Below, piece after piece: positions 1 to 64,000 of a DNA stretch of 64,000 nt. A program made the position numbers and the translations under genes. Numbering within the stretch: position 1 is the first letter of the stretch; every line of letters begins with the position of its first letter. The notes under the pieces were generated by a model. That model had not been told where the DNA came from. It saw nothing but the letters and a program-made list of their open reading frames with translations, and searched no databases. The stretch is taken from NCBI GenBank assembly GCA_947650365.1, contig CANTAL010000024.1, positions 372,001 through 436,000 on the forward strand. Direction: 5' to 3'. The stretch is from Chamaelirium japonicum (lineage: Eukaryota > Streptophyta > Magnoliopsida > Liliales > Melanthiaceae).

Positions 1-15
1 ATGGATCGTACGAAG

Positions 16-67
16 GAATTAGAATGGATCGTACGAATGAATTCATTCGTACGATCCATTCTAATTC
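16..67. repeat. 52-bp perfect palindrome at a - to + switch
   Basis: The - block and the + block meet exactly at GAATTC (39-44), so 26 bases on each side pair perfectly. The centre lies between 41 and 42, and the symmetry ends where 15 is G and 68 is A. This is the cleanest junction in the window, since most other switches have a few unpaired bases at the centre. It could extrude as a hairpin or cruciform. Confidence 0.95.
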
Positions 68-2022
68 ATTCGTATGATCCATTCTTACTCATTCGTACGA
101 TCTATTCTAATTCATTCGTAGGATCCATTCTTACTCATTCGTACGATCGATTCTAATTCATTCATACGATCCATTCTAATTCATTCGTACGATCTAGTCT
201 AATTCATGCGCACAATCTATTCTAATTCATTCGCACGATCCATTCTAATTCTTTTGCACGAATGTATCCATTCTAATTCAATCGTACGATCCATTCTAAT
301 TCATTCGTACGATCCATTCTAATTCATTCGCACGATCCATTCTAATTCATTCATACAATCTATTCTAATTCATTCGTATGATCCATTCTAATTCATTCGT
401 GCGATCCATTCCAATTCATTCGTATGATCCATTCTTACTCATTCGTACGATCCAATCTAATTCATTCATACGATCCATTCTACGATCCATTCTAATTCAT
501 TCGTACGTTCCATTCTAATTCATTCGTACAATTCATTCTAATTCAATCCATTCTAATTCATTCGTACGATCCATTCTTACTCATTCGTATGATCCATTCT
601 AATTCATTCGCACGATGCATTCTAATTCATTAATACGATCCATTCTAATTCATTCGCACGATCCATTCTAATTCATTCACACAATCCATTCTATTTCATT
701 CGTACGATCCATTCTAATTCATTCGCATGAAGGTATCCATTCTAATTCATACAATCCATTCGCACGATCCATTGAATTAGAATGGATACATTCGTGTGAA
801 TCCATTCTATTTCGTTCGTACGATCCATTCTAATTCATTCGCGCGATCCATTCTAATTCATTCGTACGATCCATTCTAATTCATTCATACGATCCATTCT
901 AATTTATTCGCACGATCCATTCTAATTCATTCATACAATCCATTCTAATTCATTCATATGATCCATTCTATTTCATTCGTACGATCCATTCTATTTCATT
1001 CGTACGATCCATTCTAATTCATTCATATGATCCATTCGTATCCATTCTAATTCATTTGTACGATCAATTCTAATTCATTCGTACGATCCATTCTAATTCC
1101 TTCGTATGATCCATTCTAATTCATTCATACGATCCATTCTAATTCATTCGTACGATCCATTCTAATTCATTCGCACGATCCATTCTAATTCATTCGTACG
1201 ATTCATTCTAATTCAATCCATTCTAATTCATTCGTACGATCCATTCTTACTCATTCGTACGATTCATTCTAATTCATTCGCACGATCCATTCTAATTCAT
1301 TAATACGATCCATTCTAATTCATTCGCACGATCCATTCTAATTCATTCACACCATCCATTCTATTTCATTCGTAAGATCCAGTCTAATTCATTCGCACGA
1401 AGGTATCCATTATAATTCATACAATCCATTCTAATTCATTCATACGATCCAATCTAATTCATTCATACGATCCATTCTAATTCATTCGCATGAATGTATC
1501 CATTCTAATTCATTCGTACGATCCATTCTAATCCATTTGTATGAATGTATCCACTCTAATTCATTCATAGGATCCATTCTAATTCATTCGCACGAATGTA
1601 TCCATTCAAATTCATTCATACGATCCATTCTAATTCATTCATACGATCCATTCTATTTCATTCGTACGATCCATTCTTACTCATTCGTACGATCCATCGT
1701 AATTTATTTGCACGATGGTATCCATTCTAATTCATTCGCACGAATGTATCCTTTCTAATTCATTCGTACGATCCATTCTAATTCATTCATACGATCCATT
1801 CTATTTCATTCGTACGATCCATTCTTACTCATTCGTACGATCCATTCTAATTCATTTGCACGAAGATATCCATTCTAATTCAATCGTACTATCCATTCTA
1901 ATTCATTCGTACGATCCATTCTATTTCATTCGTACGATCCATTCTATTTCATTCATATGATCCATTCTAATTCATTCGTACGATCCATTCTTACTCATTC
2001 GTACGATCCATTCTAATTCATT
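42..2022 (+). repeat. + block with one 36-bp flip
   Basis: The monomers are + from 42 to 773 and from 810 to 2022. Between them, 774-809 is a single reversed unit (GAATTAGAATGGATACATTC). TTACTC variants are frequent (82, 129, 428, 571). Long monomers with GAATGTATCC occur at about 259, 1494, 1543, 1603 and 1742. Short 15-bp monomers (TAATTCAATCCATTC) occur at about 540 and 1210. Frames that stay open for 73-81 codons at 1537-1960 are repeat by-products. Confidence 0.9.
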
Positions 2023-3280
2023 TAGAAGGGATACATTCGTGCGAATGAATTAGAATGGATCGTATGAATGAATTAGAATCGATCGTACGAATGAATTAGA
2101 ATGGATCATGCGAATGAATTAGAATGGATCGTACGAATGAATTAGAATGGATCATGCGAATGAATTAGAATGGGTCGTACGAATGAATTAGAATGGATAC
2201 ACGATCCAGATCCATTCTAATTCATTCGCACAATCTATTCTAATTCATTCGTAGGATCCATTCTAATTCATTACTACGATCCATTCTAATTCATTCGCAC
2301 GATCCATTCTAATTCATTCGCATGATCCATTCTAATTCATTCGTACGATCGATTCTAATTCATTCATACGATCCATTTTAATTCATTCGCACGAATGTAT
2401 CCATTCTAAATGAATTAGAATGGATCGTACGAATGAGTAAGAATGGATCGTGCGAATGAATTAGAATGGATCATATGAATGAATTAGAACGGATCATATG
2501 AATGAATTAGAATGGATCGTGCGAATAAGTTAGAATGGATCGTATGAATGAATTAGAATCGATCGTATGAATGAATTAGAATGGATCGTGCGAATGAATT
2601 AGAATGGATCGTGCGAATGAATTAGAATGGATCGTACGAATGAAATAGAATGGATTGTACGAATGAGATAGAATGGATCGTACGAATGACTTAGAATGGA
2701 TAATTCATGCGAATGAATTAGAATGGATCATACGAATGAATTAGAATGGATTCATTCGTGCGAATGAATTAGAATGGATCGTACGAATGAGTAAGAATGG
2801 ATCGTACGAATGAATTAGAATGGATTGAATTAGAATGAATCGTACGAATGAAGTTGAATGGATCGTACGAATGAATTAGAATGGATCGTACGAATGAATT
2901 AGAATGGATTGAATTAGAATGAATCGTACGAATGAATTAGAATGAATCATACCGTACGAATGAATTAGAATGGATCATACGAAGGAATTAGAATGGATCG
3001 TGCGAATAAATTAGAATGGATCGTATGAATGAATTAGAATAGATCGTACGAATGAATTAGAATGGATCGTACGAATGAATTAGAATTGATACATTCGTGC
3101 GAATGAATTAGAATGGATCGTATGAATGAATTAGATTGGATCGTATGCATGAATTAGAATGGATCGTGCGAATGAATTAGAATGGATCGTACGAATGAAT
3201 TAGAATGGATCGAACGAATGAATTAGAATGGATACATTCGTGCAAAAGAATTAGAATGGATTGTATGAATGAATTAGATT
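1985..3280 (+). repeat. 2.29-kb-spaced direct repeat, member D1
   Basis: It contains a + to - switch (CATTTAGAAGG, 2020), a - to + switch with ACACGATCCAGATCC (2200), a + to - switch (CTAAATGAATTAG, 2406) and a long - run ending near TGCAAAAG (3241). The same series follows at 4278-5573 with a constant offset of 2,293 bp: 2041 matches 4334, 2201 matches 4494, and 3241 matches 5534. The stable offset means there has been almost no net indel since the duplication. Confidence 0.9.
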
Positions 3281-4070
3281 GGATCGTATGAATGAATTAG
3301 AATGGATTGTATGAATTAGAATGGATACCTTCGTGCGAATGAATTAGAATGGATCGTACGAATGAAATAGAATAGATTGTGTGAATGAATTAGAATGGAT
3401 CGTGCGAATGAATTAGAATGGATCGTATTAATGAATTAGAATGGATCGTGCGAATGAATTAGAATGGATCGTTCGAATGAGTAAGAATGGATCGTACGAA
3501 TGAATTAGAATGGATTGAATTAGAATGAATCGTACGAATGAATTAGAATGGATCGTGCGAATAAATTAGAATGGATCGTACGAATGAATTAGAATGGATC
3601 GTACGAATGAGTAAGAATGGATCGTACGAATGAATTAGAATGGATTGTACGAATGAAATAGAATAGATCGTACGAATGAATTAGAATGGATCATGCTAAT
3701 GAATTAGAATTGATCGTACGAATGAATAGAATGGATCGTACGAATGAATTAGAATGGATCGTACGAATGAATTAGAATGGATTGAATTAGAATGAATCGT
3801 ACGAATGAATTAGAACGAATCATACCGTACGAATGAATTATAATGGATCATACGAAGGAATTAGAATGGATCGTACGAATGAATTAGAATGGATCGTACG
3901 AAGGAATTAGAATGGATCGTACGAAGGAATTAGAATGGATAGTACGAATGAATTAGAATGGATACCTTCGTGCAAATGAATTAGAATGGATCGTACGAAT
4001 AAGTAAGAATGGATCGTACGAATGAAATAGAATGGATCGTATGAATGAATTAGAATGGATACATTCGTGC
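2023..4070 (-). repeat. Mostly - block with a 200-bp + insert
   Basis: Orientation is - at 2023-2207, + at 2208-2409 and - at 2410-4070. GAGTAAGAATGG (the TTACTC variant) and short monomers with GGATTGAATTAGAATG recur at about 2825, 2907, 3510 and 3780. The composite marker CATACCGTACG is at 2948 and 3830. Confidence 0.88.
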
Positions 4071-4277
4071 GAATCCATTCTATTTCATTCGTACGGTATG
4101 GATCTGGATCATGTACCCGTTCTAATTCATTCGTACGACCCATTCTAATTCATTCACACGATCCATTCTAATTCATTCGTACGATCAATTCTAATTCATT
4201 AGTATGATCCATTATAATTCATTCGTACGATCTATTCTATTTCATTCGTACAATCCATTCTAATTCTTTCGCACGAT

Positions 4278-5573
4278 CCATTCTTACTCATTCATACGAT
4301 CCATTCTAATTCATTTAGAATGGATACATTCGTGCGAATGAATTAGAATGGATCGTATGAATGAATTAGAATCGATCGTACGAATAAATTAGAATGGATC
4401 ATGCGAATGAATTAGAATGGATCGTACGAATGAATTAGAATGGATCGTGCGAATGAATTAGAATGGGTCGTACGAATGAATTAGAATGGATACACGATCC
4501 AGATCCATTCTAATTCATTCGCACAATCTATTCTAATTCATTCGTAGGATCCATTCTAATTCATTACTACGATCCATTCTAATTCATTCGCACGATCCAT
4601 TCTAATTCATTCGCATGATCCATTCTAATTCATTCGTACGATCGATTCTAATTCATTCATACGATCCATTCTAATTCATTCGCACGAATGTATCCATTCT
4701 AAATGAATTAGAATGGATCGTACGAATGAGTAAGAATGGATCGTGCGAATAAATTAGAATGGATCATATGAATGAATTAGAATGGATCGTATGAATGAAT
4801 TAGAATGGATCGTGCGAATAAATTAGAATGGATCGTATGAATGAATTAGAATCGATCGTACGAATGAATTAGAATGGATCATGCGAATGAATTAGAATGG
4901 ATCGTGCGAATGAATTAGAATGGATCGTACGAATGAAATAGAATGGATTGTACGAATGAGATAGAAGGGATCGTACGAATGACTTAGAATGGATAATTCA
5001 TGCGAATGAATTAGAATGGATCATACGAATGAATTAGAATGGATTCATTCGTGCGAATGAATTAGAATGGATCGTACGAATGAGTAAGAATGGATCGTAC
5101 GAATGAATTAGAATGGATTGAATTAGAATGAATCGTACGAATGAATTAGAATGGATCGTACGAATGAATTAGAATGGATCGTACGAATGAATTAGAATGG
5201 ATTGAATTAGAATGAATCATACGAATGAATTAGAATGAATCATACCGTACGAATGAATTAGAATGGATCATACGAAGGAATTAGAATGGATCGTGCGAAT
5301 AAATTAGAATGGATCGTATGAATAAATTAGAATAGATCGTATAAATGAATTAGAATGGATCGTACGAATGAATTAGAATGGATACATTCGTGCGAATGAA
5401 TTAGAATGGATCATATGAATGAATTAGATTGGATCGTATGCATGAATTAGAATGGATCGTGCGAATTAATTAGAATGGATCGTACGAATGAATTAGAATG
5501 GATCGAACGAATGAATTAGAATGGATACATTCGTGCAAAAGAATTAGAATGGATTGTATGAATGAATTAGAAT
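4278..5573 (+). repeat. 2.29-kb-spaced direct repeat, member D2
   Basis: This is the partner of 1985-3280 with the same order of switches: CATTTAGAATGG at 4313, ACACGATCC at 4494, CTAAATGAATTAG at 4698. It ends near TGCAAAAG (5534), after which the two members diverge. Immediately downstream, a piece of this member, marked by TATGCATGAATTAG at 5447, is repeated at 5687, which gives a 240-bp local tandem duplication. Confidence 0.9.
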
Positions 5574-5770
5574 GGATCGTGCGAATGAATTAGAATGGAT
5601 CGTACGAATGAATTAGAATGGATACATTCGCGCGAATGAATTAGAATGGATCGTATGAATGAATTAGATTGGATGTTATGCATGAATTAGAATGGATCGT
5701 GCGAATGAATTAGAATGGATCGTACGAATGAATTAGAATGGATCGAACGAATGAATTAGAATGGATCGTA
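5386..5770 (-). repeat. 240-bp local tandem duplication
   Basis: Two adjacent runs share the order GATACATTCG, GATTGGAT, TATGCATG, GATCGAACG. The TATGCATG marker is at 5447 and 5687. The second run has CGCGCGAATG where the first has CGTGCGAATG. The same pair is present in copy B at about 34200-34580, so it predates the A/B duplication. Confidence 0.75.
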
Positions 5771-6541
5771 CGAATGAGTAAGAATGGATCGTACGAATGA
5801 ATTAGAATGGATCGTGCGAATGAATTAGAATATTGATCGTACGAATGATTTAGAATGGATCGTATGAATAAATTAGAATGGATCGTGCGAATGAGTTAGA
5901 ATGGATCGTACGAATGAATTAGAATGGATCGTGCGAATGAATTAGAATGGATCGTACGAATGAATTAGAATGGATTGAATTAGAATGAATCGTAGGAATG
6001 AATTAGAATAGATCGTATGAATGAATTAGAATGGATCGTACGAATGAATTAGAATGGATCGTGCTAATGAATTTGAATGGATCGTGCGAATGAATTAAAA
6101 TGGATCGTATGAATGAAATAGAATGGATCGTATGAATTAGAATGGATCGTACGATTGAGAAAGAATGGATCGTACGAATAAAATAGAATGGATCGTATGA
6201 ATGAATTAGAATGGATCGTGCGAATGAATTAGAATGGATCATGCGAATGAATTAGAATGGATCGTGCGAATGAATTAGAATGGATCATACGAATGAATTA
6301 GAATGGATTGTACGAATGAATTAGAATGGATTGAATTAAAATGGATCGTACGATAAGAATGGATCGTACGGAGGAATTAGAATGGATCGTACAAAGGAAT
6401 TAGAATGCATAGTACGAATGAATTAGAATGGATACATTCGTGCAAATGAATTAGAATTGATCGTACGAATGAGTAAGAATAGATCGTACGAATGAATTAG
6501 AATGGATCGTACGAATGAATTAGAATGGATACATTCGTGCG

Positions 6542-9328
6542 AATCCATTCTATTTCATTCGTACGATCCATTCTAATTCATTCGCACGATCCATTCTAAT
6601 TCATTCATACGATCCATTCTTATCGTACGATCCATTCTAACTCAATCCATTCTAATTCATTCGTACGATCCATTCTAATTCATTCGTACGATCCATTCTA
6701 ATTCCTTCGTACGATCCATTCTAATTCCTTCGTACGATCCATTCTTATCGTACGATCCATTCTTATCGTACGATCCATTCTAATTCAATCCATTCTAATT
6801 CATTCGTACGATCCATTCTAATTCATTCGTACGATCCATTCTAATTCATTCGCACGATCCATTCTAATTCATTCGCACGATCCATTCTAATTCATTCATA
6901 CGATCCATTCTATTTCATTCGTACGATCCATTCTTACTCAATCGTACGATCCATTCTAATTCATTTGCACGAAGGTATCCATTCTAATTCATTCGTACTA
7001 TCCATTCTAATTCCTTCGTACGATCCATTCTAATTCCTTCGTACGATCCATTCTAATTCATTCGTACGATCCATTCTAATTCATTCGTACGATCCATTCT
7101 AATTCCTTCGTATGATCCATTCAAATTCATTCGCACGAATCTATCCATTCTAATTCATTCGTACGATCCATTCTAATTCATTCGCACGATCCATTCTAAT
7201 TCATTAATTCGATCCAATCTAATTCATTCATACGATCCATTCTAATTCATTCGCACGAATGTATCTATTCCAATTCATTCGTACGATCCATTCTAATTCA
7301 TTCGTACGATCCATTCTAATTCGAATGGATACGAAGGAATTAGAATGGATCGTACGAATGAATTAGAATGGATTGAATTAGAATGAATCGTACGAATGAA
7401 TTAGAATGGATCGTACGAATGAATTAGAATGGATCGTATCAATGAAATAGAATGGATCGTATGAATGAATTAGAATGGATCGTGCGAATGAATTAGAATG
7501 GATCGTACGAATGAATTAGAATGGATCGTATGAATGAATTAGAATGGATCGTGCGAATAAATTAGAATGGATCGTATGAATGAATTAGAATGGATCGCAC
7601 GAATTAGAATGGATCGTACGAATGAAATAGAATGGATCGTACGAATGAATTAGAATAGATTGTGCGAATGGATTAGAATGGATCATACGATTGAGTAAGA
7701 ATGGATTGTACGAATGAAATAGAATAGATCGTACGAATGAATTAGAATGGATCATGCTAATGAATTAGAATTGATCGTACGAATGAATTAGAATAGATTG
7801 TGCGAATGAATTAGAATGGATAGTACGAATGAATTGGAATGGATACATTCGTGCGAATCCATTCTATTTCATTCGTACGATCCATTCTAATTCATTACTA
7901 CGATCCATTCTAATTCACTCGTACGATCCATTCTAATTCATTCGTACGATCCATTCTAATTCATTCGCACGATCAATTCTAATTCATTCATACGATCCAT
8001 TCTAATTCATTCATACGATCCATTCTAATTCATTCGTACTATCCATTCTAATTCCTTCGTACGATCCATTCTAATTCATTCGTACGATCTATTCCAATTC
8101 ATTCGTACGATCCATTCTTACTCATTCGTACGATCCATTCTAATTCATTTGCACGAAGGTATCCATTCTAATTCATTCGTACTATCCATTCTAATTCCTT
8201 CGTACGATCCATTCTTATCGTACGATCCATTCTAATTCAATCCATTCTAATTCATTCGTACGATCCATTCTAATTCATTCGTACGATCCATTCTAATTCA
8301 TTTGCACGATCCATTCTAATTCATTCGCATGATCCATTCTAATTCATTCGCACGATCCATTCTAATTCATTCATACGGTCCATTCTATTTCATTCGTACG
8401 ATCCATTCTAACTCAATCGTACGATCCATTCTAATTCATTTGCACGAAGGTATCCATTCTAATTCATTCGTACTATCCATTCTAATTCCTTCGTACGATC
8501 CATTCTAATTCCTTCGAACGATCCATTCTAATTCATTCATACGATCCATTCTAATCCATTTGTACGAATGTATCCACTCTAATTCATTCATACGATCCAT
8601 TCTAATTCATTCGTACGATCCATTCTAATTCATTCGTACGATCCATCCTAATTCATTCGCACAATCTATTCTAATTCATTCGTACGATCCATTCTAATTC
8701 ATTCGCACGATCCATTCGCATTCACTTAAACGATCCATTCTAATTCATTCATATGATCCATTCTAATTCATTCGCACGAATGTATCCATTCAATCCATTC
8801 TAATTCATTCGTACGATCCATTCTAATTCATTCGTACGGTATGATTCATTCTAATTCATTCGTACGATTCATTCTAATTCAATCCATTCTAATTCATTCA
8901 TATGATCTGGATCGTGTATCCATTCTAATTCATTCGTACGATCAATTCTAATTCATTCGCACATATCCATTCTAATTCATTCATACGATCCATTCTATTT
9001 CATTCGTACGATCCATTCTTACTTATTCGTACGATCCATTCTAATTCATTCGTACGATCCATTCTAATTCATTCGTACGTTCCATTCTAATTCATTCGTA
9101 CGATCCATTCAAATTCTTTAATACGATCCATTCTAATTCATTCGCATGATCCATTCTAATTAATTCATATGATCCATTCTAATTCATTCGTACGATCCAT
9201 TCTAATTCATTCGTACGATCCATTCTAATTCATTCGCATGAATGAATCCATTCTAATTCATTTGTACGATCGATTCTAATTCATTCATACGATCCATTCT
9301 AATTCATTCGCACGAATGTATCCATTCT
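6542..9328 (+). repeat. + / - / + blocks
   Basis: Orientation is + at 6542-7322, - at 7323-7856 and + at 7857-9328. The first + block has three CTTATCGTACGATCC shortened monomers (6619, 6743, 6763). Monomers with CATTTGCACGAAGGTATCC occur at 6961, 8148 and 8441. The RC composite marker CGTACGGTATGATTC is at about 8834. ATCTGGATCGTGTATCC at about 8906 lies here inside a + block and is not at a switch. Confidence 0.88.
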
Positions 9329-11816
9329 AAATGAATTAGAATGGATCGTGCGAATGAATTAGAATGGATCATATAAATGAATTAGAATGGATCGTATGAA
9401 TGAATTAGAATGGATCGTGCGAATAAATTAGAACGGATCGTACGAATGAATTAGAATGGATCATGCGAATGAATTAGAATGGATCATATGAATGAATTAG
9501 AATGGATCGTGTGAATGAATTAGAATAGATCATACGAACGAATTAGAATGGATCGTACGAATGAATTAGAATGGATTGAATTAGAATGGATCGTACGAAT
9601 GAATTCCAATGTATCCATTCTAATTCATTCATATGATCTATTCTATCTCATTCGTAAAATCCATTCTAATTCATTCGTACGATCCATTCTAATTCATGCG
9701 CACGATCCATTCTAATTCATTCGTTCGAATGTATCGTGCGAATGAGATAGAATGGATCATACGATTGAATTAGAATGTATACATTCGAATTCATTCGTAC
9801 GATCCATTCTAATTCAATCCATTCTAATTCATTCGTACGATCCATTCTAATTCATTCGTATGATCTATTCTAATTCATTCGCACGATCCATTCTAATTCA
9901 TTCGTACGATCCATTCTAATTCATTCGCATGATCCATTCTAATTCATTCGTACGATCCATTCTAATTCATTCGCACGATCCATTCTAATTCATTCATACG
10001 ATCCATTCTAATTCCTTCGTACGATCCATTCTAATTCATTTGTACGATCGATTCTAATTCATTCGCACGATCCATTCTAATTCATTCATACGAACCATTC
10101 TAATTCATTCGTACGATCCATTCTAATTCATTTGCACGAAGGTATCCATTCTAATTCATTCGTACTATCCATTCTAATCCATTCGCACGAATGAATTAGA
10201 ATGGATTGTACGAATGAATTAGAATGGATCGTACGAATGAATTAGAATGGATCGTACGAAGGAATTAGAATGGATCGTACGAATGAATTAGAATGGATTG
10301 AATTAGAATGAATCGTACGAATGAATTAGAATGAATCATACCATACGAATGAATTAGAATGGATCATACGAATGAAATAGAATGGATCGTATGAATGAAT
10401 TAGAATGGATCATGCGAATGAATTAGAATGGATCGTACGAATGAAATAGAATGGATTCGCACGAATGTATCCATTCTAATTCATTCGCACGATCCATTCT
10501 TACTCATTCGTACGATCCATTCTAATTCATTCGTGCGATCCATTCTAATTCATTCGTACGATCCATTCTAATTCAATCCATGCGAATGAATACGAATGGA
10601 TTAGAATGGATCATACGAATGAATTAGATTGGATCAAATTAATGAATTAGAATGGATCGTACGAATGAATTAGAATGGATACATTCATGCGAATGAATTA
10701 GAATGGATCATACGAATGAATTAGAATGGATTCATTCGTGCGAATGAATTAGAATGGATCGTACGAATGAGTAAGAATGGATCGTACGAATGAATTAGAA
10801 TGGATCGTATGAATGAATTAGAATGAATACATTCGTGCGATCCATTCTAATTCATTCGCATGATCCATTCTAATTCATTCGTACGATCCATTCTAATTCA
10901 TTCGTACGATCCTTTCTAATTCATTCGCACAATCTATACGTTCCATTCGAATTCATTCGTACGATCCATTCTAATTCATTCGTACGATCCATTCTTACTC
11001 ATTCGTACGATCCATTCTAATTCATTTGCACGAAGGTATCCATTCTACTTTTTTCGTACTATCCATTCTAATTCCTTCGTACGATCCATTCTAATTCCTT
11101 CGTGCGAATGTATCCATTCTAATTCCTTCGTATGATCCATTCTAATTCATTCGTACGGTATGATTCATTCTAATTCATTCGTACGATTCATTCTAATTCA
11201 ATCCATTCTAATTCATTCGTACGATCCATTCTAATTCATTCGTACGATCTATTCTAATTCATTCGTACGATCCATTCTAATTCATTTGTACGAATGTATC
11301 CACTCTAATTCATTCGTACGATCCATTCTAATTCATTTGTACGAATGTATCCTTTCTAATTCATTCGTACGATCCATTCTAATTCATTCGTACGATCCAT
11401 TCTAATTCATTCGTACGATCCATTCTAACTCATTCGCACGATCCATTCTAATTCATTCGCATGATCCTACGAATGAGTTAGAATAGATTGTATGAATGAA
11501 TTAGAATGGATCGTACGAATGAATTAGAATGGATCGTATGAATGAATTAGAATGGATTGTATGAATGAATTAGAATGGATCGTTTGAGTGAATACGAATG
11601 GATCGTGCGAATGAATTAGAATGGAATGAATTAGAATGGATTGAATTAGAATGAATCGTACGAATGAATTAGAATGGATCGTGCGAATGAATTAGAATGG
11701 ATCGTACGAATGAATTAGAATGGATCGTACGAAGGAATTAGAATGGATCGTATGAATGAATTAGAATGGATCGTGCGAATGAATTAGAATGGATCGTACG
11801 AATGAAATAGAATGGA
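9329..11816. repeat. Short-block mosaic
   Basis: The switches, by my reading, are: - 9329-9607, + 9608-9734, - 9735-9785, + 9786-10189, - 10190-10455, + 10456-10578, - 10579-10845, + 10846-11467, - 11468-11816. The junctions include GAATTCCAATGTATCC, ATTCGAATTCATTCG, GGATTCGCACGAATG, CCATGCGAATGAATACG and GATCCTACGAATG. Each recurs elsewhere in the window. The TCTATACGTTCCATTCG at about 10931 is a local irregularity shared with 39380 and 44572. Confidence 0.85.
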
Positions 11817-14800
11817 TTCGCACGAATGTATCCATTCTAATTCATTCATACGATCCATTCTATTTCATTCATACGATCCATTCTATTTCATTCATACGAT
11901 CCATTCTAATTCATTCGTACGATCCATTCTAATTCATTCGTACGATTCATTCTAATTCAATCCATTCTAATTCATTCCATTCTAATTCATTCGCACGATC
12001 CATTCGCATTCACTCAAACGATCCATTCTAATTCATTCATACAATCCATTCTAAGTCTTTTGCACGAATGTATCCATTCTAATTCATTCGTACGATCCAT
12101 TCTAATTCATTCGTATGATCTATTCTTATTCATTCGCATGATCCATTCTAATTCCTTCGTACGATCCATTCTAATTCAATCGTACGATCCGTTCTAATTC
12201 ATTCGCACAATCCATTCTAATTCATTCGTATGATCCATTCTAATTCATTCGCATGATCTATTCTAATTCATTCATACGATCCATTCTAATTTATTCGCAT
12301 GATCCATTCTAATTCATTCATACAATCCATTCTAATTCTTTTGCACGAATGTATCCATTCTAATTCATTCGTACGATCCATTCTAATTCATTCGTACGAT
12401 CCATTCTAATTCATTCGCACAATCCATTCTAATTCATTCACACTCATACGATCCATTCTAATTCATTCGCACGAATGTATCCTTTCTAATTCATTCGTAC
12501 GATCCATTCTAATTCATTCGCACAATCTATTCTAATTCATTCGAATGATCCATTCTAAGTCATTCGTACGATCCATTCTAATTCATTCGTACGATCCATT
12601 CTAATTCATTCGCACGATCCATTCTATTCCATTCGTACGATCCATTCTAATTCATTCGCACAATCCATTCTATTTCATTCGTACGATCCATTCTAATTCC
12701 TTCGTACGATCCATACGAATGAATTAGAAAGGATATATTCGTGCGAATGAATTAGAATGGATCGTACGAATGAATTAGAAAGGATATATTCGTGCGAATG
12801 AATTAGAATAGATCGTATGAATGAATTAGATTGGATCGTATTAATGAATTAGAATGGATCATACGAATGAATTAGAATAGATCGTACGAATGAATTAGAA
12901 TGGATACGAATGGATCGTATGAATGAATTAGAATGGATCGTACGAATGTATTAGAATGGATCGTACGAATGAATTAGAATGGATTGAATTAGAATGAATC
13001 GTACGAATGAATTAGAATGAATCATACCGTACGAATGAATTAGAATGGATCGTATGAATGAATTAGAATGGATCCTACGAATGAATTAGAATGGATTGAA
13101 TTAGAATGAATCGTATGAATGAATTAGAATGGATCGTGCGAATAAATTAGAATGGATCGTACGAATGAAATAGAATGGATCGTGCGAATGAATTAGAATG
13201 GATCGTACGAATGAATTACAATGGATCGTACGAATGACTTAGAATGGATCGTTCGAATGAATTAGAATAGATTGTGCGAATGAATTAGAATGGATCGTAC
13301 GAATGAATTAGAATGGATCGTACGAATGAATTAGAATGGATCGTACGAATAAATTAGATTGGATACGATGAATGAATTAGAATGGATCGTATGAATGAAT
13401 TAGAATAGATTGTGCGAATGAATTAGAATGGATCGTACGAATGAATTAGAATGGATCGTATGAATGAATTAGAATGGATCGTGCGAATGAATTAGAATGG
13501 ATCGTACGAATGAAATAGAATGGATTCGCACGAATGTATCCATTCTAATTCATTCGTATGATCCATTCTATCTCATTCGTACAATCCATTCTATTTTATT
13601 CGTACGATCCATTCTAATTCATTCATACGATCCATTCTAATTTTTTCGCACGATCCATTCTAATTCATTCATACGATCCATTCTAATTCATTCATATGAT
13701 CCATTCTAATTCATTCGCACGATCCATTCTAATTCATTCGTACGATCCATTCTAATTTATTCGCACGATCCAGTCTAATTCATTCGCACGATCCATTCTA
13801 ATTCATTCATACGATCCATTCTGATTCATTCGTATCCATTCTAATTCGTTCGTACGATCCATTCTAATTCATTCGCACGATTCATTCTAATTCAATCCAT
13901 TCTAATTCATTCGTACGATCCATTCTTACTCATTCGTACGATCCATTCTAATTCATTCGCACAATCCATTCTAATTCAATCCATTTTAATTCATTCGTAC
14001 GATCCATTCTTACTCATTCGTACGATCCATTCTAATTCATTCGCACAATCCATTCTAATTTATTTGCACGAAGGTATCCATTCTAATTCATTCGTACTAT
14101 CCATTCTAATTCCTTCGTACGATCCATTATGAATGAATTAGAATGGATCATGCGAATGAATTAGAATGGATCGTGCGAATGAATTAGAATGGATCGTACG
14201 AATGAAATCGAATGGATTGTACGAATGAGATAGAATGGATCGTACGAATGAATTAGAATCGATTGTGCGAATGAATTAGAATGGATCGTACGAAGGAATT
14301 AGAATGTATCGTACGAATGAATTAGAATGGATCGTACGAAGGAATTAGAATGGATCGTACGAATGAATTAAAATGGATCGTACGAATGAATTAGATTGGA
14401 TCGTATTAATGAATTAGAATGGATTGTACGAATGAATTAGAATAGATCGTACGAATGAATTAGAATGGATACGAATGGATCGTACGAATGAGTAAGAATG
14501 GATCTATTTTAATTCATTCATACGATCCATTCTAATTCATTCGTACGATCCATTCTAATTCATTCGCACGCTATTCTAATTCATTCGTAGGATCCATTCT
14601 AATTCATTCGTACGATCCATTCTAATTCATAAGTACGATCCATTCTAATTCATTCGCACGATCCATTCTAATTCATTCATACGAATCCATTCTATTTCAT
14701 TCGTACGATCTATTCTATTTCATTCGTACAATCTATTCTAATTCATTCATACGATCCATTCTAATTCATTCGTACGATCCATTCTAATTCATTCGCACGC

Positions 14801-54176: not shown

Positions 54177-55879
54177 ATCATGCGAATGAATTAGAATGGA
54201 TCGTACGAATTAATTACAATGGATCGTACGAAGGAATTAGAATGGATCGTACGAATGTATCCATTCTAATTCATTCGTACGATCCATTCTAATTCATTCG
54301 TACGAACGTATCCATTCTAATTCATTTGTACGAATGTATCCACTCTAATTCATTCGTACGATCCATTATAATTCATTAGCACGATCCATTCTAATTCATT
54401 CGTACGATCCATTCTAATTCATTTATACGATCCAATCTAATTCATTCATACGATCCATTCTAATTCATTCGTACGATCCATTCTAATTCATTCGTACGAT
54501 CCATTCTAATTCTTGCGAATGTATCCATTCTAATTCATTCCTACGATCCATTCTAATTCATTCGTACAATCCATTCTAATTCATTCGCACGATCCATTCT
54601 AATTCATTCGCATGATCCATTCTAATTCATTCGTACGATCGATTCTAATTCATCCATTCTAATTCATTCGTACTATCCATTCTAATTCCTTCGTACGATC
54701 CATTCTAATTGATTCGCACGAATGTATCCATTCTAATTCATTCGTACGAATGGATCGTATGAATGAATTAGAATGGATCGTACGAATGAATTAGAATGGA
54801 TCGTGCTAATGAATTAGAATGGATCGTACGAATGAATTAGAATAGATTGTGCGAATGAATTAGAATGGATCGTACGAATGAATTAGAATAGATCGTACGA
54901 ATGAATTAGACTAGATTGTGCGAATGGATTAGAATGGATCATACGATTGAGTAAGAATGGTTTGTACGAATAAAATAGAATAGATCGTACGAATGAATTA
55001 GAATGGATCGTATGAATGAATTAGAATCGATCGTACGAATGAGTAAGAATGGATCGTACGAATGAATTAGAATGGATTGAATTAGAATGATTCGTACGAA
55101 TGAATTAGAATGGATCGTGCGAATGAATTAGAATGGGTCGTACGTACGAATTAGAATGGATACACGATCCAGATCCATTCTAATTCATTCGCACAATCTA
55201 TTCTCATACGATCCATTCTAATTCATTCGCACGAATGTATCCATTGTAATTCATTCGTACGATCCATTCTAATCCATTTGTAGGAATGTATCCACTCTAA
55301 TTCATTCCTACGATCCATTCTAATTCATTCGCACAATCTATTCTAATTCATTCGTACGATCAATTCTAATTCATTAGCATGATCCATTCTAATTCATTCG
55401 TACGATCTATTCTAATTCATTCGTACGATCCATTCTAATTCATTCGTACGATCCATTCTAATTCCTTCGCACAATCCATTCTAATTCATTCGTACGATTC
55501 ATTCTAATTCAATCCATTCTAATTCATTCGTACGATCCATTCTAATTCATTCGTACGATCCATTCTAATTCATTAGTACGGTCCATTCTAATTAGAATAG
55601 ATTGTATGAATTAGAATGGATCGTATGAATGAATTAGAATAGATCGTACGAATGAATTAAATGGATTGAATTAGAATGAATCTTACGAATGAATTAGAAT
55701 GGATCGTGCGAATGAATTAGACTATGGATCGTACGAAGGAATTAGAATGGATCGTACGAATGAATTCGGATGTATCCTTTCTAATTCATTCGTACGATCC
55801 ATTCTAATTCATTCGTACGATCCATTCTAATTCATTCGTATAATCCATTCTAACTCATTCGCACGATCCATTCTAATTC

Positions 55880-56460
55880 ATTCGCACGATCCTACGAATG
55901 AATTAGAATAGATTGTACGAATGAATTAGAATGGATCTGGATCGTGTATCCATTCTAATTCATTCGTACGACCCATTCTAATTCATTCGTACGATCCATT
56001 CTAATTCATTCATACGATCCATTCTATTTCATTCATACGACCCTTTCTTACTCATTCGTACGATCCATTCTATTTCATTCGCACGATCCATTCTAATTCA
56101 TTCATATGATCCATTCTAATTCATTCGCACGAATGTATCCATTCTAATTCATTCGTACGATCCATTCTAATTCATTTGTACGAATCTATCCACTCTAATT
56201 CATTCGTATGATCCATTCTAATTCATTTGTACGAAAGTATCCTTTCTAATTCATTCGTACGATCCATTCTAATTCATTCGTACGATCCATTCTAATTCAT
56301 TCGTACGATCCATTCTAACTCATTCGCACGATCCATTCTAATTCATTCGCACGATCCTACGAATGAATTAGAATAGATTGTGCGAATGAATTAGAATGGA
56401 TCTGGATCGTGTATTCATTCAAATTCATTCGTACGACCCATTCTAATTCATTCGTACGAT
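55880..56460 (+). repeat. 465-bp-spaced duplication of a - cassette
   Basis: GATCCTACGAATG opens a short - run that ends at GGATCTGGATCGTGTATCC, followed by GTACGACCC. The run lies at 55891 and again at 56356, and both markers differ by exactly 465 bp. Each - cassette is only about 45-50 bp and sits in + DNA. Confidence 0.85.
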
Positions 56461-57139
56461 CCATTCTAAGTCATTCGCACGATCCATTCTAATTCATTCG
56501 CACGATCCATTCTAATTCATTCACACGATCCATTCTAATTCATTCATATGATCCACTCTAATTCATTCATACGATCCATTCTAATCCATTCGCACAATCT
56601 ATTCTAATTCATTCGTACGATCCATTCTATTTCATTCGTACGATCCATTCTATTTCATTCGTACGATCCATTCTAATTCATTCGTACAATCCATTCTAAT
56701 TCATTCGTACGATCCATTCTATTTCATTCGTACAATCCATTCTATTTCATTCGTACGAATGAATTAGAATGGATACCTTCGTGCAAATGAATTAGGATGG
56801 ATCGTACGAATGAGTAAGAATGGATCGTACGAATTAAATAGAATGGATCGTATGAATGAATTAGAATGGATCGTACGAATGAATTAGAATGGATTGTACG
56901 AATGAATTAGAATGGATCGTACGAATGAAATAGAATGGATCGTACGAATGAAATAGAATGGATCGTACGAATGAATTGGAATAGATTGTGCGAATGGATT
57001 AGAATGGATCGTATGAATGAATTAGAGTGGATCATATGAATGAATTAGAATGGATCGTATGAATGAATTAGAATGGATCGTGCGAATGAATTAGAATGGA
57101 TCGTGCGAATGAATTAGAATGGATCGTACGAATGAATTA

Positions 57140-57760
57140 GAATGGGTCGTACGAATGAATTAGAATGGATACACGATCCAGATCCATTCTAATTCATTCG
57201 CACAATCTATTCTAATTCATTCGTAGGATCGTGCGAATGAATTAGAATGGATCGTGCGAATGAGTTAGAATAGATCGTACGAATGAATTAGAATGGATCG
57301 TACGAATGAATTAGAATGGATCGTACGAATGAATTAGAAAGGATACATTCGTACAAATGAATTAGAATGGATTGTACGAATGAATTAGAGTGGATACATT
57401 CGTACAAATGAATTAGAATGGATCATACGAATGAATTAGAATGGATACATTCGTACGAATGAATTAGAATGGATCATATGAATGAATTAGAATGGATCGT
57501 GCGAATGAATTAGAATGGATCGTACGAATGAGTAAGAATGGATCGTACGAATGAAATAGAATGGATCATATGAATGAATAAGAATGGATCGTACGAATGA
57601 ATTAGAATGGGTCGTACGAATGAATTAGAATGGATACACGATCCAGATCCATTCTAATTCATTCGCACAATCTATTCTAATTCATTCGTAGGATCGTGCG
57701 AATGAATTAGAATGGATCGTGCGAATGAGTTAGAATGGATCGTACGAATGAATTAGAATG
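57140..57760 (+). repeat. 465-bp-spaced duplication of a + cassette
   Basis: GGGTCGTACG, then ACACGATCCAGATCC, then a + run of about 54 bp ending CGTAGGATCGTGCG, occurs at about 57146-57235 and about 57611-57700. The offset is 465 bp at two markers (57181 and 57646; 57231 and 57696). The DNA between is - and contains three TACATTCGTAC long monomers. Confidence 0.85.
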
Positions 57761-58066
57761 GATCATACGAGTTAATTAGAATGGATCGTACGAATGAATT
57801 AGAAAGGATACATCCGAATTCATTCGTACGATCCATTCTAATTCCTTCGTACGATCCATAGTCTAATTCATTCACACGATCCATTCTAATTCATTCGTAC
57901 GATTGATTCTAATTCAATCCATTCTAATTCATTCGTACGATCTATTCTAATTTATTCACACGATCCATTCTAATTCATTCGTACGATTGATTCTAATTCA
58001 ATCCATTCTAATTCATTCGTACGATCTATTCTAATTCATTCGTACGATCTATTCTAATTCATTCGT

Positions 58067-60672
58067 ACGAATGAATTAGAATGGATACATTCGCACGAAT
58101 TAGAATGGATCGTACGAATGAATTAGAATGGATCGTACGAATGAATTAGAATGGATCATATGAATGAATTAGATTGGATCGTATAAATGAATTAGAATGG
58201 ATCGTACGAATGAATTAGAATGGATCGTGCTAGTGAATTAGAATGGATCGTACGAATGAATTAGAGTGGATACATTCGTACAAATGAATTAGAATGGATA
58301 CATTCGTACGAATGAATTAGAATGGATCGTACGAATGAATTAGAATGGATACATTCGCACGAATTAGAATGGATCGTACGAATGAATTAGAATGGATCGT
58401 ATGAATAAATTAGATTGGATCGTATAAATGAATTAGAATGGATCGTACGAATGAATTAGAATGGATCGTGCTAATGAATTAGAATGGATCGTACGAATGA
58501 ATTAGAGTGGATACATTCGTACAAATGAATTAGAATGGATACATTCGTGCGAATGAATTAGAATGGATCGTGCGAATGAATTAGAATGGATCGTACGAAT
58601 GAATTAGAATGGATCGTATGAATGAATTAGATTGGATCATATTAATGAATTAGAATGGATCGTACGAATGAATTAAAATAGATCGTACGAATGAATTAGA
58701 ATGGATACGAATGGATCGTACGAATGAGTAAGAATGGATCGTACGAATGAAATAGAATGGATTGTACGAATGAATTAGAATGGATACTTTCGTGCGAATG
58801 AATTAGGATGGATCGTATGAATGAATTAGAATGGATCGTACGAATGAATTAGAATGGATACATTCGTGCGAATGAATTAGAATGGATCGTATGAATGAAT
58901 TAGAATCGATCGTACGAATGAATTAGAATGGATCATGCGAATGAATTAGAATGGATCGTGCGAATGAATTAGAATGGATCGTATGAATGAATTAGAATGG
59001 ATCGTATGAATGAAAAAGAATGGATCGTACGAATGAACAAGAATGGATCGTGCGAATGAATTAGAATGGATCGTACGAATGAATTAGAATGGATCGTACG
59101 AAGGAATTAGAATGGATCGTATGAATGAATTAGAATGGATCGTGCGAATGAATTAGAATGGATCGTACGAATGAATTAGAATGGATACATTCGTGTGAAT
59201 GAATTAGAATGGATCATACGAAGGAATTAGAATGGATCGTACGAATGAATTAGAATGGATCGTACGAATGAATTAGAATGGATACATTCGTGCGAATGAA
59301 TTAGAATGGATCATACGAATGAGTAAGAATGGATCGTGCGAATGTATTAGAATGGATCATATGAATGAATTAGAATGGATCGTATGAATGAATTAGAATG
59401 GATCGTGCGAATAAATTAGAATGGATCGTATGAATGAATTAGAATAGATTGTGCGAATGAATTAGAATGGATCGTACGAATGAATTAGAATGGATACATT
59501 CGTGCGAATGAATTAGAATGGATCATATGAATGAATTAGAATCGATCGTACGAATGAATTAGAATGGATCATGAGAATGAATTAGAATGGATCATACGAT
59601 TGAGTAAGAATGGATTGTACGAATGAAATAGAATAGATCGTACGAATGAATTAGAATGGATCGTGTGAATAAATTAGAATGGATCGTATGAATGAATTAG
59701 AATGGATCGTACGAATGAATTAGAATGGATTCATTCGTGCGAATGAATTAGAATGGATCGTGCGAATGAATTAGAATTGATCGTGCGAATAAATTAGAAT
59801 GGATCGTACGAATGAATTAGAATGGATCGTATGAATGAATTAGAATAGATCGTACGAATGAATTAGAATGGATTAGAATGAATTAGAATGGATCGTGCGA
59901 ATGAATTAGAATGGATCGTACGAAGGAATTAGAATGGATCGTATGAATGAATTAGAATGGATCGTGCGAATGAATTAGATTGGATCATATGAATGAATTA
60001 GAATAGATCGTGCGAATGAAATAGAATGGATCGTACGAATGAATTAGAATGGATCGTACGAATGAATTAGAATGGATCGTACGAATGAATTAGAATGGAT
60101 ACATTCGTGCGAATGAATTAGAATGGATCATACGAAAGAGTAAGAATGGATCGTGCGAATGAATTAGAATGGATCATATGAATGAATTAGAATGGATCGT
60201 ATGAATGAATTAGAATAGATCATGCGAATGAATTAGAATGAATTAGAGTGGATACATTCATACAAATGAATTAGAATGGATACATTCGTACGAATGAATT
60301 AGAATGGATCGTACGAATGAATTAAAATGGATACATTCGCACGAATTAGAATGGATCGTATGAATGAATTAGAATAGATCGTACGAATGAATTAGAATGG
60401 ATCGTATGAATGAATTAGATTGGATCGTATAAACAAATTAGAATGGATCGTATGAATGAATTAGAATGGATCGTGCTAATGAATTAGAATAGATCGTACG
60501 AATGAATTAGAGTGGATACATTCGTACAAATGAATTAGAATGGATACATTCGTGCGAATGAATTAGAATGGATCGTGCGAATGAATTAGAATGGATCGTA
60601 CGAATGAATTAGAATAGATTGTGCTAATGAATTAGAATGGATCGTATGAATGAATTAGAATGGATACATTCG
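58067..60672 (-). repeat. Longest single-orientation block (2.6 kb, -)
   Basis: This is an uninterrupted - run between switches at 58067 and 60672. It holds a local duplication marked by ACATTCGCACGAATTAG at 58087 and about 58351 (264 bp apart) and GAGTGGATACATTCG at 58264 and 58505 (241 bp apart). The 23-bp difference is one monomer lost from the second copy. A third copy of the same series is at about 60240-60560. Confidence 0.88.
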
Positions 60673-61488
60673 TGCGAATCCATTCTATTTCATTCGTACG
60701 ATCCATTCTTATTCATTCGCACGATCCATTCTAATTCATTCGCACGATCCATTCTAATTCCTTCGTACGATCTATTCTAATTCATTCGTACGATCCATTC
60801 TAATTCCTTCGTATGATCCATTCTAATTCATTCGTACGGTATGATTCATTCTAATTCATTCGTACGATTCATTCTAATTCAATCCATTCTAATTCATTCG
60901 TACGATCCATTCTAATTTCTTCGTATGATCTATTCTAATTCGTTCGTACGATCCATTCTATTTCATTCGTACGATTCTAATTCATTCGTACGATCCATTC
61001 TAATTCATTCATACGATCCATTCTAGTTCATTCGTATGATTCATTCTAATTCAATCCATTCTAATTCATTCCATTCTAATTCATTCGCACGATCCATTCG
61101 CATTCACTCAAACGATCCATTCTAATTCATTCATACAATCCATTCATTCGTACGATACATTCTAATTCATTCGTATGATCCATTCTAATTCATTCGTACG
61201 ATCCATTCTAATTCATTTGTACGGTATGATTCATTCTAATTCATTCGTACGATTCATTCTAATTCAATCCATGCTAATTCATTCGTACGGTATGATTCAT
61301 TCTAATTCATTCGTACGATTCATTCTAATGCAATCCATTCTAATTCATTTGTACGATCCATTCTAATTCATTCATATGATCCATTCTAATTCATTCGCAC
61401 GAATGTATCCATTCTATTTCATTCGTACGATCCATTCTAATTCATTCGCACGATCCATTCTAATTCATTCATACGATCTATTCTAATT
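60673..61488 (+). repeat. + block with clustered composite markers
   Basis: CGTACGGTATGATTC occurs three times here (about 60835, 61220 and 61285), the last two about 65 bp apart, each followed by a short 15-bp monomer. CGCATTCACTCAAACG is at about 61090. A 63-codon frame at 61175-61366 is repeat-derived and contains this marker in frame. Confidence 0.86.
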
Positions 61489-64000
61489 TGAATGGATCGC
61501 ACGAATGAATTAGAATGGATCGTACGAATGAGTAAGAATGGATCGTACGAATGAATTAGAATGGATTGAATTAGAATGAATCGTACGAATGAATTAGAAT
61601 GGATCTTACGAATGAATTAGAATGGATTGAATTAGAATGAATCGTACGAATGAATTAGAATGAATCATACCGTACAAATGAATTAGAATGGATCATACGA
61701 ATGAATTAGAATAGATCATACGAAGAAATTAGAATGGATCGTACGAATGAATTAGAATGGATTGAATTAGAATGAATCGTACGAATGAATTAGAATGAAT
61801 CATACCGTACGAATGAATTAGAATGGATCATACGAAGGAATTAGAATGGATCGTACGAACGAATTAGAATGGATCGTACGAATGAATTAGAATGGATCGT
61901 ACGATTCATACGATCCATTCTAATTCATTCGTACGATCCATTCTAATTCATTCGCACAATCTATTCTAATTCATTCTAATTCATTCGTACGATCTATTCT
62001 AATTCCTTCGTATGATCCATTCTAATTCATTCGTACGGTATGATTCATTCTAATTCATTCGTACGATTCATTCTAATTCAATCCATTCTAATTCATTCGT
62101 AAGATCCATTCTAATTCATTCGTACGATTCATTCTAATTCAATCCATTCTAATTCATTCGTACGATCCATTCTTACTCATTCGTACGATCCATTCTAATT
62201 CATTCGTGCGAATGAATTAGAATGGATCATACGAAGGAATTAGAATGGATCGTACGAATGAATTAGAATGGATCGTACGAATGAATTAGAATGGATACAT
62301 TCGTGCGAATGAATTAGAATGGATCGTATGAATGAATTAGAATCGATCGTACGAATGAATTAGAATGGATCATGCGAATGAATTAGAATGGATCGTGCGA
62401 ATGAATTAGAATCGATCGTACGAATGAAATAGAATGGATTGTACGAATGAGATAGAATGGATCGTACGTACGAATGAATTAGAATGGATCGTACGAATGA
62501 ATTAGAATGGATTGAATTAGAATGAATCGTATGAATGAATTAGAATGAATCATACCGTACGAATGAATTATAATGGATCATACGAAGGAATTAGAATGGA
62601 TCGTACGAATGAATTAGAATGGATCGTACGAATGAATTAGAATGGATCATACGAAGGAATTAGAATGGATCGTACGAAGGAATTAGAATGGATAGTACGA
62701 ATGAATTAGAATGGATACCTTCGTGCAAATGAATTAGAATGGATCGTACAGAATGAGTAAGAATGGATCGTACGAATGAAATAGAATGGATCATATGAAT
62801 GAATTAGAATGGATCGTATGAATGAATTAGATTGGATACATTCGTGCGAATCCATTCTATTTCATTCGTACGATCCATTCTAATTCATTCGCACGATCCA
62901 TTCTAATTCATTCATACAATCCATTCTAATTCCTTCGTACGATCCATTCTAATTCATTCGTACGATCCATTCTAATTCATGCATACGATCCATTCTGATT
63001 CATTCGTACGATCCATTCTAATTCATTCGTACGATCCATTCAAATTCATTCGCACCATCTATTCTAATTCATTCGTACGATCCATTCTAATTCATTCGCA
63101 CGATCCATTCTAATTCATTCATACGATCCATTCTATTTCATTCGTACGATCTATTCTTACTCATTGTACGATCCATTCTAATTCATTTGCACGAAGGTAT
63201 CCAATCTAATTCATTCGTACTATCCATTCTAATTCCTTCGTACAATCCATTCTAATTCCTTCGTACGATCCATTCGGATACATTCGTGCGAATCCATTCT
63301 ATTTCATTCGTACGATCCATTCTAATTCATTCGCACGATCCATTCTAATTCATTCATACGATCCATTCTATTTCATTCGTACGATCCATTCTAATTCATT
63401 CACACGAATGTATCAATTCCAATTCATTCGTACGATCCATTCTAATTCATTCGCACGATCCATTAGAATGGATTTTATGAATGAATTAGAATGTATCGTA
63501 TGAATGAATTAGAATGGATACATTCGTGCGAATGAATTAGAATGGATCGTATGAATGAATTAGAGTGGATACATTCGTACAAATGAATTAGAATGGATCG
63601 TCCGAATGAATTAGAATGGATACATTCGTGCGAATGAATTAGAATGGATCATATGAATGAATTAGAATGGATCGTTTGAGTGAATGCGAATGGATCGTGC
63701 GAATGAATTAGAATGGATTGTACGAATGAATTAGAATGGATCGTACGAATGAATTAGAATGGATCGTATGAATGAATTAGAATGGATCGTACGAATGAAT
63801 TAGAATGGATTGTACGAATGAATTAGAATGGATTGAATTAGAATGAATCGTACGAATGTATTAGAATGGATCGTATGAATGAATTAGAATGGATCGTGCG
63901 AATGAATTAGAATGGATCGTGCGAATGAATTAGAATGGATCGTACGAATGAATTAGAATGGATCGTATGAATGAATTAGATTGGATCGTATTAATGAATT
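61489..64000. repeat. Alternating blocks to the window end
   Basis: Orientation is - 61489-61901, + 61902-62208, - 62209-62845, + 62846-63272, a reversed scrap of about 16 bp, + 63290-63463 and - 63464-64000. The stretch 62520-62845 repeats the series at about 3800-4085, including GAATTATAATGG and TACCTTCGTGC. It carries a one-base slip at 62748 (GTACAGAATGAG). The array runs off the end in - orientation. Confidence 0.86.

What the first reader, a model, noticed from the sequence alone, without database searches (positions are those of the whole stretch)
1..64000. A satellite of 23-bp units that flips orientation about 140 times in 64 kb
Satellite arrays are usually head-to-tail over long distances, with inversions rare. 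Here blocks of both orientations alternate at 20 bp to 2.6 kb, with no unique DNA at any switch. That suggests a mechanism that repeatedly copies the opposite strand, such as template switching at stalled forks, or repeated inversion followed by amplification. The count is mine by eye and may be off by about 10%.
Basis: seen in the sequence. Interest (0 to 1): 0.75.

Follow-up and report, generated by a model that had tools for sequence, protein, structure and literature searches.

The report
Holocentromere satellite with inherited strand flips
The stretch is centromere-type repeat DNA of a flowering plant whose 23-base units really do switch strand about 136 times in 64,000 bases; such mixed orientation is already published for what is almost certainly this plant, and most of the switches look like old ones copied along with longer DNA blocks.

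Summary
In detail: an HMM strand call finds 136 orientation flips (142-160 with looser settings), blocks of 10-2,598 bp, and no non-satellite DNA at the flips; single-orientation simulations give 2. The window is G000:C36:372001-436000 of a 1.52-Gb plant genome, almost certainly Chionographis (Chamaelirium) japonica. The repeat matches its CENH3-enriched satellites Chio1 (23 bp) and Chio2 (28 bp), whose mixed orientation Kuo et al. 2023 (PMC10264360) already report.

The flips are mostly inherited. They fall into 34-56 junction sequences; one occurs 27 times here, and its 31-mer 11,862 times genome-wide. Window 1-30000 shares all 63 of its flips with a 99.3%-identical stretch of another contig. 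A ~28.7-kb block carries 60 flips, and 10-kb parts of it recur at 98-99% identity on several chromosome scaffolds.

Some founder flips look like fold-back inverted duplications: three distinct flips are centres of imperfect palindromes, a C4 locus has an extra 2.1-kb inverted duplication, and junctions favour short microhomology. Arrays on scaffold C1 use a mostly different junction set, so flipping arose more than once. Frequent fresh switching is not supported.

The parts
1..64000 (.). Uninterrupted array of the 23-bp satellite (Chio1-type, forward unit ATCCATTCTAATTCATTCGTACG) with some 28-bp units (Chio2-type, ...CGCACGAATGTATCC...), 136 orientation flips, 137 blocks
   Evidence: HMM strand call; exact Chio2-type 28-mer counted 15 + 23 times
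1..28686 (.). One ~28.7-kb block carrying 60 flips; its start recurs at 28687 here and 28,771 bp further on contig C14
28687..43342 (.). Second, partial copy of the block (98.6% identical to 1-14861; 28 of 31 flips found, 3 in alignment gaps, none absent)
14888..20149 (.). First copy of a ~5.97-kb tandem duplication that doubles most of its flips
   Evidence: 96.4% identity; 8 of 11 flips matched, 2 absent, 1 in a gap
20868..26104 (.). Second copy of the ~5.97-kb tandem duplication
6516..6547 (+). Example of junction J1 (reverse-to-forward, TGAATTAGAATGGATACATTCGTGCGAATCCA): 27 copies in the window, both strands; its 31-mer 11,862 times in the genome
2183..2214 (+). Example of junction J2 (reverse-to-forward, ATGAATTAGAATGGATACACGATCCAGATCCA): 15 copies in the window, both strands
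55400..58207 (.). Imperfect palindrome A centred on the forward-to-reverse flip at 56756; arms aligned over 1,354 bp at 95.5% (up to the limit searched), spacer 66 bp; five pairs of flips mirror each other; the flip itself lies at the 8-bp dyad
14907..16637 (.). Imperfect palindrome B centred on the forward-to-reverse flip at 15761; arms 850 bp at 93.9%, spacer 26 bp; its copy in the 5.97-kb duplication is centred on 21729
26504..27493 (.). Imperfect palindrome C around the reverse-to-forward flip 27020; arms 467 bp at 97.0%

Best explanation
This is part of a centromere-type array of the Chio1/Chio2 satellite of the holocentric plant Chionographis japonica. Its dense strand flips were built in two stages. 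First (inferred, supported for a few flips), single strand switches arose rarely as inverted duplications: a broken or stalled end folds back, primes on a short self-complementary stretch such as the 8-bp dyad TCGTACGA of the monomer, and copies the opposite strand. Second (shown), blocks that already contained flips were duplicated at distances of about 0.5 to 29 kb, and blocks of at least 10 kb stand in other arrays too, so most flips are copies of older ones. Inversion by recombination between oppositely facing blocks (inferred) would explain why the two commonest junctions are found about equally on both strands. Any role of the flips in centromere function is untested.
For: Identity: the paper gives units of 23 and 28 bp differing by a 5-bp deletion and one substitution, an 8-bp dyad, both orientations, a 1.526-Gb assembly and 16.11% of the genome; here a 1.519-Gb genome, the same two unit lengths with exactly that difference, and roughly 19% of the genome by extrapolation. 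Copying: 63 of 63 flips shared with C14 over 29,701 aligned bp at 99.28%; in 7 of the 16 loci no aligned flip is missing (one of the 7, L012, is part of that C14 stretch); 429 of 448 flips in 24 fetched loci use a junction already in the window, against 179 of 800 random splices; J1 31-mer 5,941 forward and 5,921 reverse, 0 in the reversed-pattern control. Origin: flips 56756, 15761 and 27020 (and 21729, the copy of 15761) have mirrored arms whose score is reached by at most 0.07% of 3,000 control arm pairs from different flips of the same type; 17 of 136 flips exceed the control's 95% level and 9 its 99% level, where about 7 and 1.4 are expected; a 2.1-kb inverted duplication on C4, arms 96.5%; microhomology of 4 bp or more in 8 of 47 window junction classes and 6 of 17 forward-to-reverse classes on C1, against 3.6% expected. 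Junction strand: J1 15 against 13 and J2 8 against 7 by phase.
Against: Most of the 136 junctions are not above the mirrored-arm controls (20 above the 95% level, 17), so a fold-back origin is not shown for most founders. Flip 61904 beat the first, weaker control but its score is reached by 0.47% of the second, not convincing among 136 tests; flip 11828 failed. J1 itself has no microhomology. C1 reverse-to-forward classes show no clear excess (1 of 10). The third junction type by phase has 9 copies in one direction and 2 in the other, against equal strands. C1 arrays have mostly different junctions (14 of 48 in the window's set, chance about 22%), so the flips are not one frozen accident. Six of 16 loci, chosen by similarity to the window's first 600 bases, share only part of the pattern, and L015 and L019 each show one unmatched extra flip; window copy 2 against C14 gives 27 of 29 flips, 1 absent, 1 in a gap. 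The published monomer letters were not seen.
Confidence: 0.77

Rival explanations
1. Frequent, ongoing strand switching: replication forks stall at the palindromic monomers and the polymerase repeatedly copies the opposite strand, so most flips are separate recent events.
For: Flips occur at broadly similar density in the satellite loci sampled, including C1 loci with a mostly different junction set; the monomer holds an 8-bp palindrome; microhomology excess; some palindromes with 93.5-97.0% arms.
Against: 63 of 63 flips conserved against about 214 substitutions; near-identical junctions recur up to 27 times in the window and J1 11,862 times in the genome; the seamless palindromic reverse-to-forward junction that such switching might favour occurs 0 times in the window, although at 3,509 sites in the genome.
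Confidence: 0.12
2. Assembly artefact: the assembler or missed adapters created the orientation mosaic.
For: Satellite arrays are hard to assemble; no raw reads were available here.
Against: The same 63 flips stand in two contigs that differ at 0.7% of aligned bases, and most of those of the first 10 kb on scaffolds C2, C3, C11 and C12. Missed-adapter palindromes should have near-identical arms; here they are 93.5-97.0%. The published assembly used HiFi reads and reports mixed orientation.
Confidence: 0.03
3. Conserved structural scaffold: flips are kept by selection because inverted arms form hairpins or cruciforms that help CENH3 chromatin form, as proposed for Tribolium macro-dyads.
For: Junction J1 is nearly invariant (19 of 27 copies identical over 32 bp); T. 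madens inversion sites are also highly conserved; Chio arrays are CENH3-enriched.
Against: Copying explains the invariance without selection; similarity around 18 J1 copies falls to background after about one monomer on one side and about four on the other; exact J1 is absent from the 4 C1 loci read.
Confidence: 0.08

Closest known systems
Chio1/Chio2 satellites of Chionographis japonica (Kuo et al. 2023, PMC10264360; abstract, sections 8 and 14 and search passages read)
Macro-dyad arrays of TmSat1/TmSat2 in Tribolium madens (PMC13081366; abstract, section 7 and passages read)
   Same: Satellite subarrays change orientation at a few highly conserved inversion-site sequences found thousands of times, shared across contigs
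   Different: Beetle, ~110-bp-derived monomers, predominantly two subarrays per array; here blocks have a median of 344 bp and there are about 60 flips per 28.7-kb block
Template-switch inverted duplications such as ODIRA (PMC10766183; search listing with the start of the abstract only)
   Same: Inverted copies made by template switching during replication
   Different: Here the arms are diverged satellite, the events look old, and the link to any one model is my inference

Membership tests
Chio1/Chio2 satellite (C. japonica CL1) | 23-bp and 28-bp monomers differing by a 5-bp deletion and a 1-bp substitution | tested here: met
   ATTCGTACGA-TCCATTCTAATTC versus ATTCGCACGA-ATGTA-TCCATTCTAATTC, read from the window; rule
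Chio1/Chio2 satellite (C. japonica CL1) | Same monomer letters as the published consensus | not testable with these tools
   The letters are in a figure that is not held; a full-text search for CGTACGATCCATTC found 0 papers
Chio1/Chio2 satellite (C. japonica CL1) | 8-bp dyad symmetry in the monomer | tested here: met
   TCGTACGA is its own reverse complement and occurs 1,004 times in the window; that it is the paper's 8 bp is inferred
Chio1/Chio2 satellite (C. japonica CL1) | Mixture of forward and reverse arrays | tested here: met
   136 flips
Chio1/Chio2 satellite (C. japonica CL1) | About 16% of the genome | tested here: met
   2,162,270 exact consensus 24-mers; scaled by this one window's density about 290 Mb, 19% of 1.519 Gb; a rough figure
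Chio1/Chio2 satellite (C. japonica CL1) | CENH3 enrichment | not testable with these tools
   Published; no ChIP data here
Macro-dyad satellite arrays (Tribolium type) | Opposed subarrays meeting at a conserved inversion-site sequence | tested here: met
   J1 27 and J2 15 copies in the window; J1 31-mer 11,862 in the genome
Macro-dyad satellite arrays (Tribolium type) | Predominantly two long subarrays per array | tested here: not met
   137 blocks in 64 kb, median 344 bp
Fold-back inverted duplication at each flip | Arms on either side of the flip are mirror copies of each other | tested here: inconclusive
   17 of 136 above the control's 95% level, 9 above its 99% level (20 above 95%); three distinct clear palindromes; arms of older flips may have diverged

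The most novel reading that the evidence does not exclude
Flip patterns act as heritable barcodes showing that blocks of at least 10 kb (about 30 kb in the one pair tested at full length) move between centromere units of different chromosomes, in either orientation and recently. Then the ~100 centromere units of this holocentric plant are kept alike by long block transfer (circular DNA or break repair between clustered centromeres), not only by short gene conversion, and the self-complementary monomer supplies both the flips and the joining sites.
Probability: 0.35. Interest if true: 0.65.

Novelty: already known. Interest (0 to 1): 0.4.

Why it matters
The satellite and its mixed orientation are published, but how such satellites spread among the many centromere units of this plant is discussed there as open (interlocus gene conversion, inversions or circular DNA). 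A fixed order of about 60 flips per 28.7 kb is a far sharper marker than 23-bp monomers. It would make that question testable: comparing flip patterns across units could give the size, orientation and recency of each transfer. It also warns that a nearly invariant inversion site, as reported in Tribolium, can come from copying alone and need not mean function.

Tried and rejected
Ideas rejected. (1) Assembly artefact: see rivals. (2) A prokaryote, viral or contaminant source: 0 exact matches of one 24-mer in viral contigs and genome contigs; the window's own genome has 1.52 Gb. (3) A subtelomeric repeat: my first reading of the scaffold-end positions; dropped because other matches lie inside scaffolds and the paper places Chio arrays in units along the chromosomes. 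(4) All flips from seamless switching at the palindrome: 0 such reverse-to-forward junctions in the window, although 3,509 sites in the genome. (5) One founder set for the whole genome: C1 loci differ. (6) One-sided spacers as proof of fold-back: dropped by reasoning, because a mirrored satellite alignment tends to run to the flip on one side. (7) Flips tied to Chio2-type units: 44 of 136 flips lie within 25 bp of such a motif, against 14.4 expected, but the J1 class contains the motif and I did not test without it; no independent support. (8) A large tandem array of the 28.7-kb unit: its 56-base start marker occurs only 9 times exactly, on C6, C14, C36, C41 and C99, so it looks like a low-copy block.

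Literature that led nowhere: '23-bp satellite' 0 papers; inverted arrays in plants 0 papers; Altemose et al. 2022 not held; PMC4022460 searched for passages only. PMC10264360 was first listed in the tenth and last search.

Limits: 16 of the 20 loci went into the flip comparison (L010 and L011 hold a retroelement; L013 and L014 were used). One search used 24 loci, 16 chosen by similarity to window 1-600 and 8 neighbours on C36 and C14, so shared junctions are biased upward and not independent; flips near locus ends or with poor satellite fit were dropped there, and L001-L008 and L032 were not counted. C1 loci were chosen for holding a seamless junction. Controls include pairs of copied flips, which makes them stricter. 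Junction J2 and two forward-to-reverse patterns were never counted genome-wide, because those searches did not complete.
Full report
WHAT IS THERE. The whole 64-kb window is one 23-bp satellite. A cyclic HMM with 23 phases on each strand gives 136 orientation flips at flip priors of 0.0003 or lower, 146-160 at 0.001-0.002, and over-segments at looser priors. Blocks run from 10 to 2,598 bp with median 344 and a spread close to exponential (CV 1.03). Simulated single-orientation arrays give 2 flips each in three runs. There are 68 reverse-to-forward and 68 forward-to-reverse junctions, and the 40 bp around each fits the satellite model about as well as the rest (mean log emission -0.26 against -0.25, worst -0.57).

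WHERE IT COMES FROM. The window is C36:372001-436000 of a 1,518,659,071-base genome in 3,253 contigs. A retroelement with Pfam reverse transcriptase, integrase and Retrotrans_gag domains interrupts the array elsewhere on C36. The exact consensus 24-mer occurs 1,074,372 times forward and 1,087,898 times reverse, with 0 in the reversed-pattern control. At this window's density that is about 290 Mb, 19% of the genome, a rough figure. Kuo et al. 2023 (PMC10264360; abstract, sections 8 and 14 and passages read) describe Chionographis japonica: 2n = 24, a primary assembly of 1,526,137,861 bp, and a CENH3-enriched satellite cluster of 16.11% of the genome with 23-bp (Chio1) and 28-bp (Chio2) monomers that differ by a 5-bp deletion and one substitution. 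[quoted passage not shown] The window shows the same two unit lengths with exactly that difference, and TCGTACGA as an 8-bp palindrome. I could not see the printed monomer letters. The taxonomy lists the species as Chamaelirium japonicum, Melanthiaceae. The excess of C-to-T and G-to-A changes in CGTACG agrees with the mCpG enrichment that the paper reports for these arrays.

THE FLIPS ARE COPIED. Direct self-comparison shows 1-14861 repeated at 28687-43342, 14888-20149 repeated at 20868-26104, and a 2.3-kb duplication. The flips fall into 34 to 56 junction classes depending on the threshold. Reverse-to-forward junctions are fewer in kind than forward-to-reverse ones at all five settings (for example 13 against 21). 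J1, TGAATTAGAATGGATACATTCGTGCGAATCCA, makes up 27 of 68 reverse-to-forward flips, 19 of them identical over 32 bp; its 31-mer occurs 5,941 + 5,921 times in the genome. Eighteen J1 copies outside the obvious duplications share above-background sequence for about four monomers on one side and about one on the other, as expected for one founder whose surroundings were later exchanged.

The strongest test is between contigs. Window 1-30000 aligned to C14:1695165-1725164 gives 99.28% identity over 29,701 bases, and all 63 flips are at the same place, 63 in each. The block start recurs after 28,771 bp on C14, as after 28,684 here. Window copy 2 against the same C14 stretch gives 27 of 29 flips, 1 absent and 1 in a gap. 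Among the 16 loci of 10 kb, seven (L009, L012, L015, L019, L020, L021, L028; 97.7-99.2% identical; L012 is part of the C14 stretch) lack none of the aligned flips (19, 21, 21, 20, 18, 18 and 21 found; 2, 0, 0, 1, 3, 3 and 0 unaligned); L015 and L019 each show one unmatched extra flip. Three more lack one or two (L016 18 found, 1 absent, 2 unaligned; L017 20, 1, 0; L027 16, 2, 3). Six (L018, L022-L026) share only part of the pattern, 6 to 14 flips found. L028 lies on scaffold C2, L020 on C11, L017 on C12 and L027 on C3, so the pattern is on different chromosome scaffolds if the scaffolding is right. Over 24 loci near or similar to the window, 429 of 448 flips use a junction already present in the window, against 179 of 800 random splices. 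The block itself looks low-copy: its 56-base start marker occurs 9 times exactly.

FLIPPING AROSE MORE THAN ONCE. Four C1 loci (29 kb) were picked because they hold a seamless reverse-to-forward junction found at 3,509 sites in the genome and never in the window. They have 48 counted flips in 27 classes; only 14 of the 48 match the window's set, near the chance level, and exact J1 is absent. They too repeat their own junctions: one stands twice 5,550 bp apart on L036 and again on L037, more than 47 Mb away. So at least two array lineages acquired most of their flips separately, and each then copied its own.

HOW FLIPS START. A mirrored-arm test asks whether the sequence after a flip is the mirror copy of that before it. 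Most junctions do not exceed the controls: 20 of 136 are above the 95% level, and 17 above the 95% and 9 above the 99% level, where about 7 and 1.4 are expected. Three distinct flips clearly do: 56756 (arms 1,354 bp, 95.5%), 15761 (850 bp, 93.9%; its copy 21729 at 93.5%) and 27020 (467 bp, 97.0%); their scores are reached by at most 0.07% of 3,000 control pairs. A fourth, 61904, beat the first control but is reached by 0.47% of the second, and 11828 failed the first. Around 56756 five pairs of flips mirror each other exactly, so one event doubled several. On C4 an inverted duplication with arms of about 2.1 kb at 96.5%, lacking in the window's version, adds flips at one place. Microhomology of 4 bp or more is found in 8 of 47 window classes (binomial p 2.5e-4 against 3.6%) and in 6 of 17 forward-to-reverse classes on C1, but in only 1 of 10 C1 reverse-to-forward classes. 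These facts fit fold-back inverted duplication at short palindromes for part of the founders; for the rest the origin is inferred. By phase J1 is found 15 times in one direction and 13 in the other, J2 8 and 7, which fits later inversion between oppositely facing blocks; the third type is 9 and 2, which does not.

KNOWN OR NEW. The satellite and its mixed orientation are known. A similar layout with conserved inversion sites is known in Tribolium madens (PMC13081366). In what I searched and read I did not see flips counted or used as markers of block transfer for this plant, but I read only parts of its paper and no supplements, so I make no claim that this is unpublished.

VERDICT. True observation, already known in kind.

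Noticed in passing
L010 (C36:125218-135217) from about base 970 into L011 to about base 4800: A ~14-kb stretch with retrotransposon gag, reverse transcriptase and integrase reading frames and a 43-bp tandem repeat interrupts the satellite array.
   Followed up: partly
L036 (C1:2354001-2362000): A repeat of about 5.55 kb with its own set of flips; one of its junctions recurs on L037, more than 47 Mb away on the same scaffold.
   Followed up: partly
window 1-64000, monomer core CGTACG: The CpG positions of the monomer carry more C-to-T or G-to-A changes (5-19%) than the other cytosines (about 1-8%), as expected for methylated DNA.
   Followed up: no
L023 (C4:92907492-92917491), about 5000-9200: An inverted duplication with ~2.1-kb arms (96.5% identical) centred on a flip at 6991 that the window's version of the block lacks.
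   Followed up: partly
window 49445-50170: A 342-bp unit repeated 2.1 times at 95% match, a young local expansion.
   Followed up: no
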